Below are positions 9,909 to 13,058 of a DNA stretch of 64,000 nucleotides, one piece after another. The position numbers were made by a program, and so were the translations under genes. Numbering within the stretch: position 1 is the stretch's first letter; every line of letters begins with the position of its first letter. Below the pieces are notes generated by a model. It was given only the letters and a program-made list of their open reading frames with translations. It ran no database searches and had not been told where the DNA came from. The DNA is taken from assembly GCF_003024195.1 (NCBI RefSeq), contig NZ_KZ679041.1, positions 62,001-126,000 on the forward strand. The letters run 5' to 3'. The DNA comes from Streptomyces dioscori (GTDB lineage Bacteria > Actinomycetota > Actinomycetes > Streptomycetales > Streptomycetaceae).

Positions 9909-11264
9909 ATGGGCAGCCGAACCGCGCTGGTCGAGGACCTGATGGAAAGGTTCCCGCACGTACCGCGAGAGGCAGTCTTCAAGGAAGACCTGCTCCGCGG
10001 GGGCGTGGCCTTCGACGACTCCGCACTCAGCGACAACGAGGGCGGCGACGTCAAACCGAAGTCCTACTTCATCTTCTCCTTCGACCACGGCACCCTCCCC
10101 GAGCTGGGCGAGGCAGCCCTGCGCCGCCCGCCGGAGGAGATCATCCTCACCGGCGGCCCGTACGACCTGCGCCGGACCGTCGTGTCGGTCCGCGTGAACC
10201 CGTCCTCGCCCTACCGTGTCGCCGCGAGCCCCGACGGCATGCTCGGGCTGTACCTCGACGGGAAGCGCATCTCGGACGTCGGGGTGCCGCCGATGCCGGA
10301 GTACTACCGGCACAAGCTCTCCAACGGGAAGTCCGTCATGGAGGTGGCTCCGACGATCCAGTGGGGCTACCTGATCTACCTGACGGTGTTCCGCGTCTGC
10401 CAGTACTTCGGCGCCAAGGAGGAGTGCCAGTACTGCGACATCAACCACAACTGGCGCCAGCAGAAGGCGGCGGGCCGCCCGTACACCGGGGTGAAGGACG
10501 TCGACGAGGTCCTGGAGGCGCTGGAGATCATCGACCGGTACGACACGGCGAAGACGTCCACCGCGTACACGCTGACCGGCGGCGCGATCACCTCCAAGCT
10601 GCAGGGCCGCGACGAGGCCGACTTCTACGGCATGTACGCCAAGGCCATCGAGGAGCACTTCCCGGGGCGCTGGATCGGCAAGGTCGTCGCGCAGGCGCTG
10701 CCGAAGGACGACGTGCAGCGCTTCAAGGACTACGGCGTGCAGATCTACCACCCCAACTACGAGGTGTGGGACGAGTACCTGTTCAAGATGTACTGCCCCG
10801 GCAAGGAGCGGTACGTCGGCCGCGACGAGTGGCACAAGCGCATCCTCGACTCGGCGGAGGTCTTCGGGGCGCGCAATGTGATCCCCAACTTCGTGGCGGG
10901 TGTCGAGATGGCCGAGCCCTTCGGGTTCACGACGGTCGACGAGGCGATCGCGTCCACGACGGAGGGGCTGCGGTTCTTCATGTCGCAGGGCATCACGCCC
11001 CGCTTCACCACCTGGTGCCCCGAGCCGACGACTCCGCTGGGCAAGGCCAACCCGAACGGCGCGCCGCTGGAGTACCACATCCGGCTGCTGGAGTCCTACC
11101 GGGCGACGATGGATGAATTCGGGCTCTCCTCGCCGCCCGGATACGGCCCGCCCGGACCCGGTAACGCGGTGTTCTCGGTCAGCTCCTTCATGGACAGCCT
11201 CCCGGCGAACGCTCCGGTGGGCCAGGAGAAGGAAGCGGGTACGGACGAGGTGCCCGTGGCCTGA
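9909..11264 (+). CDS. Orphan radical SAM protein with CX8CX2C cluster motif
   Basis: This 451-residue protein starts at ATG 9909, with AGGAGG six bases upstream. The probable [4Fe-4S] ligands are C164, C173 and C176 in FRVCQYFGAKEECQYCDINHN, that is CX8CX2C rather than the usual CX3CX2C. The CDINHNW stretch after the last cysteine and the later LTGGAI, GKVVAQALP and NFVAGVEMA segments fit a TIM-barrel radical SAM fold (GGE-like motif, strands 2-5). An N-terminal region of about 150 residues precedes the cluster site. There is no peptide substrate gene or partner next to it, so the substrate is unknown. It is transcribed alone and divergently from aldO. Confidence 0.75.
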   Translation: MGSRTALVEDLMERFPHVPREAVFKEDLLRGGVAFDDSALSDNEGGDVKPKSYFIFSFDHGTLPELGEAALRRPPEEIILTGGPYDLRRTVVSVRVNPSSPYRVAASPDGMLGLYLDGKRISDVGVPPMPEYYRHKLSNGKSVMEVAPTIQWGYLIYLTVFRVCQYFGAKEECQYCDINHNWRQQKAAGRPYTGVKDVDEVLEALEIIDRYDTAKTSTAYTLTGGAITSKLQGRDEADFYGMYAKAIEEHFPGRWIGKVVAQALPKDDVQRFKDYGVQIYHPNYEVWDEYLFKMYCPGKERYVGRDEWHKRILDSAEVFGARNVIPNFVAGVEMAEPFGFTTVDEAIASTTEGLRFFMSQGITPRFTTWCPEPTTPLGKANPNGAPLEYHIRLLESYRATMDEFGLSSPPGYGPPGPGNAVFSVSSFMDSLPANAPVGQEKEAGTDEVPVA

Positions 11265-11304: not shown

Positions 11305-11457
11305 GGGCGAAGAGCGGGCCGAGGGGCTGGTGGGGACGTACGTCTGAGGCCGACGGGCCTGGTGGGGCATGCGACCGGCGGTAACCGGATTTGGCGGTGC
11401 CGCTTGTCAGTTGTGCAGGAAGCGTGAAAAACTCGCCCGGTCGCGAGACGTCCCCGT

Positions 11458-11484
11458 CAACTCCCGTATTAAACGGGTGAGTTG
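11458..11484. promoter_or_regulatory. Palindrome upstream of the CBM2 membrane protein gene
   Basis: CAACTCCCGT and ACGGGTGAGTTG form an interrupted inverted repeat around ATTAA, 24 nt before the next start codon. It is AT-richer than its surroundings. It could be an operator overlapping the promoter or a hairpin in the leader. The position suggests control of the gene at 11508. Confidence 0.45.
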
Positions 11485-11507: not shown

Positions 11508-13058
11508 ATGCAGGTGAAACCCCCACCCATGCCAGACCTGCCGACCCCTCAGGACGCCGCCGAGGCAACCTTGTTCTCGGAGTGCTGGGACGCGGTTCTT
11601 TCCTACGCCGACCTCTGCACCGGCGGCTCCGCCGACGCACGCCCCCTGGCCTCCGAGGCCTTCTCCCGCGGCATACGCGAAGCGCGCGCCGCGGAGGCCG
11701 AGACCGGCGGCAAGAGCTTCGGACGCCGGGCGCGTTCGCCCCGGCTGCCCCGCATACCGCTCCTCCTGACCGCCGTACGACAGACGACCATCGCCTGGGA
11801 GGCCCAGGGGATCGGTGACCGGCTCGTACCCGAACTGCGGCTGTGGCTCAACTCCGAGCAGGCCGAACGCTTCACCGGCCCGCCCCTGCACCGGCCGCTC
11901 GCCCTGCGCGGGCTGCGGGACATGCAGGAACCGGACGCCGCGCTCCTGTGGCTGACCGAGGTCGAGGCCATGCCGACGGCCGCGGTGGCCCGCCGGCTCG
12001 GCCTCGACCCGGCCGGCGTCACCGAGGAACTGCAGCAGGTGCGCGGGGTGTTCCGCGACCGCTGCCACCGCAACCACCTCGACACCCCGCTCTCCGAGGA
12101 GTGCCGCAGTTACGCCCGCCTGCTCGACGCGGTCACCCGCTCGCCCGCCGCCGACGTGCCGGACGACCTGTCGCGGCACCTGGCCCGCTGCGTCGAGTGC
12201 GCGGAGGCCGCCGCCTGTCTCAAGCACAGCGGGGGCGGGCTGCCCTCCGCGCTCGCGGGCGGAGTGATCGGCTGGGGCGGGCTCGCCTACCTCGAACGGC
12301 GGCGCAGGGCCGTCGAGTCGGGGCTCAGCCGCAGCGCGGCCGACGACACGGAGGAAGCCGCCGCCTGGATGAAGGAGAGCGGCGACGGCCGGGCCCGGAT
12401 CGGACGCGCCGGCCTGCTGGCCGCGGCCGCCGGAGTCTCCCTCCTCGCACTCGTCGTGACCCTGGTGCCCTTCGGCTCGGGGGACGACGGCACCGAGACC
12501 GCCGCGGAGTCGGCGGAGCGGCGGCCCGTGGGGGAGCAGGTGCCCTCGTTCGGCGGTCTGCCGTCCGACGCCGGCTCCGGGTCGCTGGGCGAGTCGACCT
12601 CGTCCACGGCGTCCCCGAAGACGCCGAAGTCCAGCGCCGGGGAGGGTGCCGGTACGGGGTCGAAGTCGGAGAAGGAGGCCCAGGGCGACTCCTCGTCCTC
12701 CGCCGAGGAGGACGGCGCCGCGCCCAACCCCAGCGAGCCCGCCGTCTGCCACGCCCGGTACGACCTGGTCAGCGAGTGGCCGGACGGCTTCCAGGCCACC
12801 GTCACCGTCAAGTCCGACTATGCCCTCGACACCTGGCGCGTCGGCTGGACCTTCCGCGACGGCCAGAAGATGACACAGATGTGGGACGGCAGCTTCGACC
12901 AGAAGGGCTCCCGCGTGACCGCGAGCGCCGCCGACTACAACAAGTCCGTCGCCGCGGGCGGCTCACTCGCCGTGGGCTTCCTGGCGTCATGGCGCGACGG
13001 GAACTCGGCACCGGTCGACTTCACGTTGAACGGACGCAGCTGCACGCACTCCAGCTGA
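11508..13058 (+). CDS. Membrane protein: sigma-like / zinc anti-sigma-like region, TM helix and extracellular CBM2
   Basis: This 516-residue protein has an unusual order. Residues about 15-190 resemble an ECF-sigma layout, ending in an HTH-like LTEVEAMPTAAVARRLGLD segment. Residues about 195-235 hold the zinc anti-sigma motif H224-x3-C228-x2-C231 (RHLARCVECAE). A single TM helix follows at about 301-321, then a Ser/Lys/Glu/Gly linker (325-410) and a C-terminal family 2 carbohydrate-binding module (about 413-513) with the paired C414/C512 and aromatic W424, W443, W459 and W495. The inferred role is sensing cellulose or chitin outside and signalling to the cytoplasm. ATG 11508 is used, but no strong ribosome site is visible; ATG 11529 is an alternative. 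Proteins of this plan exist in Streptomyces, but I know no assigned function. Confidence 0.75.
   Translation: MQVKPPPMPDLPTPQDAAEATLFSECWDAVLSYADLCTGGSADARPLASEAFSRGIREARAAEAETGGKSFGRRARSPRLPRIPLLLTAVRQTTIAWEAQGIGDRLVPELRLWLNSEQAERFTGPPLHRPLALRGLRDMQEPDAALLWLTEVEAMPTAAVARRLGLDPAGVTEELQQVRGVFRDRCHRNHLDTPLSEECRSYARLLDAVTRSPAADVPDDLSRHLARCVECAEAAACLKHSGGGLPSALAGGVIGWGGLAYLERRRRAVESGLSRSAADDTEEAAAWMKESGDGRARIGRAGLLAAAAGVSLLALVVTLVPFGSGDDGTETAAESAERRPVGEQVPSFGGLPSDAGSGSLGESTSSTASPKTPKSSAGEGAGTGSKSEKEAQGDSSSSAEEDGAAPNPSEPAVCHARYDLVSEWPDGFQATVTVKSDYALDTWRVGWTFRDGQKMTQMWDGSFDQKGSRVTASAADYNKSVAAGGSLAVGFLASWRDGNSAPVDFTLNGRSCTHSS

What the first reader, a model, noticed from the sequence alone, without database searches (positions are those of the whole stretch)
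11508..13058. Fusion of sigma-like, zinc anti-sigma-like, TM and extracellular CBM2 regions
Seen: one polypeptide joins a region with an ECF-sigma-like layout, an HX3CX2C anti-sigma-like motif (H224, C228, C231), one TM helix and a C-terminal family 2 carbohydrate-binding module. Known: CBM2 modules bind cellulose or chitin and normally belong to secreted enzymes; HX3CX2C is the ZAS anti-sigma motif. Inference: it could be a membrane-bound transcription factor released when the CBM detects polysaccharide, as an alternative to separate sigma and anti-sigma proteins.
Basis: partly seen in the sequence, partly recalled or inferred. Interest (0 to 1): 0.72.

Follow-up and report, generated by a model that had tools for sequence, protein, structure and literature searches.

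The report
Cellulose-binding membrane protein with degenerate sigma
A conserved soil-bacterium surface protein joins an outside sugar-binding domain to an inside part descended from a gene-switching sigma factor, but that part seems to have lost the features needed to switch genes on directly, so it may work as a decoy or sensor.

Summary
Window 11508-13058 (+; probable start 11529) encodes one protein with a sigma2/sigma4-derived region, a complete CHCC ZAS ligand set (C199, H224, C228, C231), one N-in/C-out TM helix and an extracellular CBM2 (Pfam E 4.6e-26). It is not chance: 60 of 150 genomes of the window's genus (Streptomyces by its named relatives) carry an orthologue. The architecture, and the idea of proteolytic release, are already in print for ECF52 (SCO4117) and ECF53. 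What appears new: this protein lies in a clade (99/94) with ricin-lectin paralogues, outside the sampled ECF52 rows. In that clade the sigma2.2 DAED motif, the sigma2.3 aromatic residue and the positive charge of regions 2.3-2.4 and of the sigma4.2 recognition helix are lost or reduced, while the domain stays under purifying selection. My best reading: a membrane polysaccharide sensor whose sigma half is now a sigma mimic (pseudo-sigma) held against its own ZAS, rather than a latent promoter-recognising sigma factor. The anatomy is well supported; the mechanism is inferred (about 0.45). Novelty: new variant of a known kind.

The parts
11508..13058 (+). ORF of 516 aa, the whole protein; probable true start at 11529 (M8)
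   Evidence: start by conservation of MPDLP and of an upstream AGGAG in most orthologues
11562..11813 (+). sigma2-like region (residues about 19-102), short of the first ECF helix; DAED-equivalent is DARP, the region 2.3 aromatic position is Leu
11898..12083 (+). sigma4-like region (residues about 131-192) with acidic recognition helix AGVTEELQQVRG
12084..12227 (+). ZAS-type zinc anti-sigma segment, residues 193-240, ligands C199, H224, C228, C231
   Evidence: invariant in 74 sequences; CHCC pattern found in 20 of 20 fetched paralogues
12237..12317 (+). juxtamembrane segment GLPSALAGGVIGWGGLAYLERRRRAVE, the most conserved block; hydropathy 1.17, followed by four Arg, probably not a TM
   Evidence: 88% of residues 246-270 invariant in 28 sequences
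12411..12467 (+). transmembrane helix, residues 302-320, N-in/C-out
12474..12746 (+). variable Ser/Gly/Glu-rich extracellular linker, residues 323-413
   Evidence: dN/dS 0.56 for residues 323-410, the highest of eight regions
12747..13043 (+). CBM2, residues 414-512, with aromatic residues W424, W459, Y477
11403..11430 (+). conserved upstream element CTTGTCAGTTGTGnnGGAAnCGTGAAAA, single copy in the genome at up to 3 mismatches
11458..11484 (+). conserved dyad CAACTC-N15-GAGTTG between that element and the start codon

Best explanation
A single-pass membrane sensor descended from an ECF52-like sigma/ZAS/TM/sugar-binding fusion. The extracellular CBM2 binds an insoluble polysaccharide (cellulose or chitin). 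Inside, the former sigma2-sigma4 pair no longer has what is needed to bind core RNA polymerase and promoter DNA well; it is kept as a folded sigma mimic that occupies the protein's own ZAS. Ligand binding or proteolysis would loosen this internal pair, so that either the ZAS captures, or the mimic displaces, partners of another sigma/anti-sigma pair in trans. Shown: ancestry, ZAS ligands, predicted topology, CBM2, loss of contact features, purifying selection. Inferred: polysaccharide binding, internal sigma-ZAS docking, mimicry, release.
For: Sigma ancestry with controls (BLAST of the sigma part to ECF52 E 1e-6 and to a lectin paralogue 2e-13). ZAS CHCC invariant in 74. DAED acids lost: 0 acidic in 64 and 1 in 12 of 76 orthologues read, against 2-3 in 18 of 18 ECFs and 2 in 13 of 13 ECF52 rows. 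Region 2.3 position: Trp in 17 of 18 ECFs, Tyr in 13 of 13 ECF52 rows, Leu or Phe in 12 of 12 CBM2 rows; recognition helix net charge (12 residues) -2 to 0 in the 75 of 77 orthologues read, against +2 to +4 in ECFs and +2 in ECF52; regions 2.3-2.4 mean +0.08 against +3.72 and +2.85. Purifying selection, pooled over 7 near orthologues: dN/dS 0.26 (sigma2-like), 0.14 (sigma4-like), 0.13 (ZAS), against 0.56 in the linker. Tree: degenerate members in one clade, intact members outside it, 99/94. Three CBM2 aromatic residues invariant. The DAED acids serve contact with beta', and ECF43 sigmas without them are inactive until phosphorylated (PMC8999054 section 12). Sigma mimicry exists (PhyR; passage of PMC8999054).
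Against: No trans partner was found: none of 80 loci of this class and none of 18 lectin-class loci gave a tblastn hit to 18 ECF sigmas within the flanks held. The mimic function itself is not shown. Models are of low confidence (pLDDT 62.0 and 60.9) and ZAS docking was not examined. The Glu after the DAED motif (sigma70 E407-equivalent, recalled numbering) is kept (Glu 11, Asp 1 of 12 rows), so core binding may be weakened rather than lost. The charge ranges of regions 2.3-2.4 just touch (ECF +1 to +6; CBM2 -1 to +1; lectin -2 to +2), and charge is only a proxy for DNA contact. The tree is rooted on long branches, about which the tool warns, and the ECF52 plus intact-lectin pairing is weak (64/35).
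Confidence: 0.45

Rival explanations
1. A working membrane-tethered ECF sigma factor of the ECF52/ECF53 type with unusual promoter recognition: the CBM2 senses polysaccharide, proteolysis removes the ZAS, and the released sigma switches on genes.
For: Same architecture as the ECF52-type protein of the same genome (L011); model published for ECF52/53; sigma core under purifying selection; Glu after the DAED position kept.
Against: DAED acids, region 2.3 aromatic residue and basic charge of both DNA-facing segments lost or reduced across orthologues; outside the sampled ECF52 clade; Pfam sigma models not reached.
Confidence: 0.22
2. A sigma factor activated by phosphorylation, as ECF43/EcfP: Ser/Thr near the lost DAED motif supplies the negative charge when a kinase acts.
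For: ECF43 lacks DAED and is activated by phosphorylation; Thr lies in the motif position in many orthologues (AATQ in 23 of 76); SCO4117 was found phosphorylated (passage).
Against: The DNA-facing segments are also degenerate, which phosphorylation at sigma2.2 would not mend; in the window copy the motif is DARP, without Ser/Thr; no Ser/Thr kinase among the seven neighbours run against NCBIfam or Pfam, an incomplete look.
Confidence: 0.08
3. A ZAS anti-sigma factor or docking protein for a distant sigma, the sigma-like part being only a scaffold; or a surface adhesin with cytoplasmic anchor and no regulatory role.
For: ZAS ligands invariant; conserved CBM2 aromatic residues would anchor hyphae to polymer.
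Against: The sigma4-like part is as constrained as the ZAS (dN/dS 0.14 and 0.13), more than expected for a dispensable scaffold.
Confidence: 0.2

Closest known systems
ECF52 group (SCO4117 of S. coelicolor; own-genome relative L011, assigned by architecture)
   Same: Order sigma2, sigma4, zinc finger, TM, linker, carbohydrate-binding domain; detectable homology.
   Different: CBM2 instead of NPCBM; linker not markedly proline-rich; sigma contact features lost; separate clade.
ECF53 and ECF48 groups
   Same: Described as sigma fused to a zinc finger and TM; some ECF52 and ECF53 proteins with carbohydrate-binding or glycosyl hydrolase domains (passages of PMC8999054 and PMC10766802).
   Different: No reference sequence or model was at hand, so membership is untested.
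PhyR sigma-like domain (sigma mimicry of NepR)
   Same: A sigma-derived domain that works by binding an anti-sigma factor (passage of PMC8999054); appears among weak fold matches (9by5, 9cb6, 3t0y).
   Different: PhyR is a response regulator acting on a separate NepR; here mimic and ZAS would be in one membrane chain.
ECF43 / EcfP
   Same: Lacks the DAED motif.
   Different: No TM, ZAS or CBM mentioned in the section read; activated by a kinase encoded nearby.
IutY (ECF243)
   Same: Sigma and membrane anti-sigma in one chain, activated by regulated proteolysis (passage).
   Different: Iron-siderophore surface signalling in Pseudomonas putida; the truncated sigma is active.

Membership tests
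ECF sigma factor | sigma2 and sigma4 domains by homology | tested here: met
   hhalign E 8.3e-6 (probability 83.5) to 18 ECFs, controls 0.36 or worse; but Pfam thresholds not reached and no sigma among PDB profile hits
ECF sigma factor | acidic DAED-type motif in sigma2.2 for beta' contact | tested here: not met
   0 acidic in 64 and 1 in 12 of 76 orthologues; DARP here
ECF sigma factor | basic sigma4.2 recognition helix and basic 2.3-2.4 region | tested here: not met
   net charge -2 to 0 (helix) and -1 to +1 (2.3-2.4), against +2 to +4 and +1 to +6 in 18 ECFs
ECF sigma factor | binds core RNA polymerase and directs promoter initiation | not testable with these tools
   needs experiment
ECF52 | zinc finger, TM, carbohydrate-binding domain after sigma | tested here: met
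ECF52 | groups with ECF52 in a tree | tested here: not met
   lies in the lectin + CBM2 clade, 99/94, outside the 13 ECF52 rows; rows sampled near the own-genome copy
ECF52 | proline-rich extracellular extension | tested here: not met
   in the window copy residues 323-413 hold few Pro and are Ser/Gly/Glu-rich, read directly; some orthologues hold more Pro
ECF53 | sequence relation to ECF53 reference | not tested
   no ECF53 sequence or model at hand
ZAS anti-sigma domain | C(H)-x24-H-x3-C-x2-C ligands (motif recalled) | tested here: met
   C199, H224, C228, C231 invariant in 74
ZAS anti-sigma domain | match to Pfam zf-HC2 | tested here: not met
   no hit listed up to E 10; the ECF52-type relative does match
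ZAS anti-sigma domain | zinc binding and sigma inhibition | not testable with these tools
   needs experiment
CBM2 | Pfam PF00553 over its cut-off, full length | tested here: met
   91.5 bits, cut-off 24, positions 1-101 of 101
CBM2 | surface aromatic triad (positions recalled from Cex CBM2a) | tested here: met
   W424, W459, Y477 invariant in 74, register from alignment to 1exg
PhyR-type sigma mimic | sigma-like domain that binds an anti-sigma factor instead of RNA polymerase | not testable with these tools
   inference

The most novel reading that the evidence does not exclude
A clade of Streptomyces membrane sensors (CBM2 and ricin-lectin types, four in this genome) in which a sigma factor has been turned into a pseudo-sigma, covalently joined to its own anti-sigma domain and to an extracellular glycan receptor: a membrane-bound sigma-mimic signalling family distinct from both one-component sigma factors and separate sigma/anti-sigma pairs.
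Probability: 0.4. Interest if true: 0.72.

Novelty: new variant of a known kind. Interest (0 to 1): 0.48.

Why it matters
How streptomycetes sense insoluble polymers such as cellulose and chitin at the cell surface is, to my knowledge, poorly understood. A conserved receptor with an outward CBM2 and an inward sigma-derived domain is a direct candidate. If the sigma half is a mimic, it shows how a sigma factor can be recycled into an inhibitor or decoy, and it warns against counting such proteins as ECF sigma factors. A plasmid homologue of the CBM2 type is annotated only as 'cellulose binding domain-containing protein', so the sigma ancestry can be missed.

Tried and rejected
Chance or wrong frame: rejected, since orthologues occur in 60 of 150 genomes of the genus, the own one included (56 with a match below E 1e-100 and 4 in split matches: G096, G055, G069, G003; counted by eye), with low dN/dS. 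Outside the genus the N-terminal part gave only weak matches (best E 1.9e-11).

CBM2 in the cytoplasm through a second TM at residues 244-262: rejected. Hydropathy is 1.17 there (orthologue mean 1.28), four Arg follow, and charge around the later TM is N-in/C-out in 76 of 76 rows measured (L109 skipped as truncated).

Functional link to the upstream radical SAM gene: a relative of it is present in 80 of 80 loci, and it lies upstream on the same strand in 65 of the 65 with full flanks, the only ones whose position I checked. But in 61 genomes 14 of 32 with the radical SAM gene lack this protein, while 18 of 19 with this protein (two of these by split matches) have it (counted by eye), so I read it as shared genomic context.

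A neighbouring true sigma as trans partner: two lectin paralogues in this genome lie near one (an ECF41-like and a group 3 type, names by my own reading). Elsewhere 0 of 18 lectin loci (about 2 kb flanks) and 0 of 80 CBM2 loci (up to 6 kb, 15 of them cut short) gave a hit (at E 1e-8, at E 1e-3). The control found the L009 neighbour at E 3.9e-43, but the 18 ECF queries did not find L010's group 3 sigma, so that type was looked for with one query only; one of the two extra queries was cut out of frame by my mistake and tested nothing.

RNA hairpin in the leader: the dyad is conserved and cells paired exceed most shuffles (12 of 500 as high), but covariation does not clearly (45 of 500 as high) and pairs or types with change are lower than in shuffles (487 and 495 of 500 as high). 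The dyad pattern has 12 places in the genome, against 2 for the backward control; of the 10 places read, about 7 seem to lie in coding sequence or rRNA, judged by eye from open frames and codon G+C, so I claim no regulon. That all 12 have spacers of 15-16 although 10-18 were allowed is unexplained.

Structure: models are weak (pLDDT 62.0 and 60.9). Foldseek gave no match at E 0.001; the best six rows are ECF sigmas (SigG1 E 0.042), the seventh is a transposase. VIA-align Z to ECF sigma2 is 6.5 at most, below the level the tool treats as safe for helical folds. The fold is supportive only. In the Pfam scan of 74 orthologues MarR_2 (9 members, best E 0.0022) was hit more often than sigma region 4 (7, best 0.027); all are below threshold.

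Literature: the paper search found no paper on the CBM2 or lectin class beyond the ECF52/53 papers (listings). Read as passages: PMC5826349, PMC8999054 (section 12 in full), PMC10766802. Huang 2015, Pinto and Mascher 2016 and Casas-Pastor 2021 were not read.

Limits of the samples: one search kept the best 80 of 274 relatives. and the trees used 12 of 77 orthologues; 18 of the 60 sigma2 matches of the genome (30 had loci; 12 of these, group 1-3 types by my reading, dropped); 12 of 28 ECF52 loci that a text pattern caught plus the own copy, which duplicates one of them (L181); and 3 own plus 20 hand-picked paralogues, of which 2 proved CBM2 type. Pfam was run on 10 of these 20: 7 lectin, 2 CBM2, and one (L231) without a sensor domain. 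The lectin group is not one clade: L010's copy stands apart, and the CBM2 orthologues are one clade in only 54% of bootstraps once L242 is added (92%). Rows left out of A2: L086, L087, L097, L150 (start pattern missed), L109, L110, L114. Two first extractions were wrong and redone: (orientation; redone in 27, which missed 2 of 30) and the ECF part (frame; redone in 63).

Full report
What is there. Window 11508-13058 on the + strand encodes 516 residues. Pfam finds CBM2 at 414-512 (E 4.6e-26) and otherwise only a sub-threshold sigma region 4 match (E 0.22). The start is probably residue 8, because orthologues begin at MPDLP, most with AGGAG before it. Residues 302-320 form the only strong TM, N-in/C-out by charge in 76 of 76 orthologues measured, so the CBM2 is outside. 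The CBM2 aligns to Cex CBM2a (1exg), and W424, W459 and Y477, which occupy the positions of its ligand-binding tryptophans as I recall them, are invariant.

Is the sigma part real? By profile-profile comparison, yes. The orthologue profile matches 13 ECF52 rows at E 8.5e-10, 21 lectin-class rows at 1.4e-24, and 18 ordinary ECF sigmas of the same genome at 8.3e-6 over 151 columns from sigma2 to sigma4; six controls gave 0.36 to 0.57. BLAST links it to ECF52 at about 1e-6 and to a lectin paralogue at 2e-13, which in turn matches ECF52 at 2e-16. Against this: no sigma chain among PDB profile hits up to E 5, MarR_2 hit more orthologues than sigma region 4 in Pfam, both below threshold, and structure models are weak and only supportive.

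Relatives. Orthologues occur in 60 of 150 genomes of the genus, and 80 named Streptomyces loci, the best of 274, were fetched. The same genome holds an ECF52-type protein (intact sigma2, zf-HC2, NPCBM) and three ricin-lectin paralogues with the same core. Plasmid-borne relatives of S. goshikiensis and Streptomyces sp. NBC_01001 combine intact sigma2 and sigma4 with ricin lectin. In the tree, ECF52 and these two intact lectin forms lie outside a clade (99/94) of degenerate lectin and CBM2 proteins; the 15 CBM2 rows group together (100/100) (similar, 99/96 and 100/99). The root lies on long branches, a caution the tool gives.

What was lost. The DAED-equivalent of sigma2.2 holds no acidic residue in 64 and one in 12 of 76 orthologues; ECFs hold 2-3 (18 of 18) and ECF52 rows 2 (13 of 13). 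The review PMC8999054 (section 12 read) states that these acids contact beta' and that ECF43 sigmas, which lack them, are activated by phosphorylation. The region 2.3 position, Trp in 17 of 18 ECFs and Tyr in 13 of 13 ECF52 rows, is Leu or Phe in 12 of 12 CBM2 rows. The recognition helix carries -2 to 0 net charge in the 75 of 77 orthologues read, against +2 to +4 in ECFs and +2 in ECF52; regions 2.3-2.4 average +0.08 against +3.72 and +2.85, with ranges that just touch. The Glu after the DAED position is kept, which speaks against complete loss. The sigma4-like part (dN/dS 0.14) is nevertheless as constrained as the ZAS (0.13), and far more than the linker (0.56), pooled over seven near orthologues.

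How it may work. The outside CBM2 and the inside ZAS are conserved, and the sigma part is conserved but stripped of most contacts. The simplest account is a sensor in which a sigma mimic is held by the ZAS, and ligand or cleavage changes what either half binds in trans. The steps after ligand binding are inference. The rival, a working released sigma, is the published model for ECF52/53 (passages of PMC5826349, PMC8999054 and PMC10766802 read). Even for SCO4117 the protein could not be overproduced to test its interaction with the proposed promoter motif.

Surroundings. A radical SAM gene (NCBIfam variant_rSAM) is present in 80 of 80 loci and lies upstream in the 65 of 65 checked for position, but it is commoner than this gene. 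An upstream element with one copy in the genome and a dyad suggest dedicated regulation of the gene.

Verdict. Observation confirmed; interpretation partly supported and, as a general architecture, already in print; the degenerate sigma clade is the part I did not find described in the searches named in Tried and rejected.

Noticed in passing
L009:1449-3593, L009:9238-12228, L010:1351-2877: Three ricin-B lectin paralogues in the same genome with the same degenerate sigma-like core and HX3CX2C motif.
   Followed up: yes
L243:3878-5563, L244:3878-5509: Plasmid-borne proteins with intact sigma2 and sigma4, ZAS motif and a ricin lectin, annotated as sigma-70 family; possibly like the intact ancestor of the lectin class.
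   Followed up: partly
window 11403-11430 and 11458-11484: Strongly conserved upstream element, single copy in the genome, followed by a CAACTC-N15-GAGTTG dyad before the start codon; no known promoter class recognised.
   Followed up: partly
own genome, 12 places of CAACTC-N15/16-GAGTTG: All 12 palindromes have spacers of 15-16 although 10-18 were allowed; backward control gave 2. Unexplained, perhaps a quirk of the search.
   Followed up: partly
window 12237-12317: Juxtamembrane motif GVIGWGGLAYLERRRR, the most conserved block of the protein; its G-W core recurs in most of the paralogues of this genome; function unknown.
   Followed up: no
window 9909-11264: Radical SAM protein of NCBIfam NF045502 with no Pfam hit at E 1e-4, upstream of the CBM2 protein in the 65 loci checked for position.
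   Followed up: partly
L221:1501-1527: Near-perfect palindrome CAACTCCCTTGGAAAGCAAGGGAGTTG between a LacI-type regulator and an aminotransferase-like gene (names by my reading), very like the dyad of the S. scabiei orthologue.
   Followed up: no
L010:3139-4062 and L010:932-1345: A lectin paralogue lies between a sigma factor of group 3 type and an ATPase-type anti-sigma-like ORF (names by my reading).
   Followed up: no
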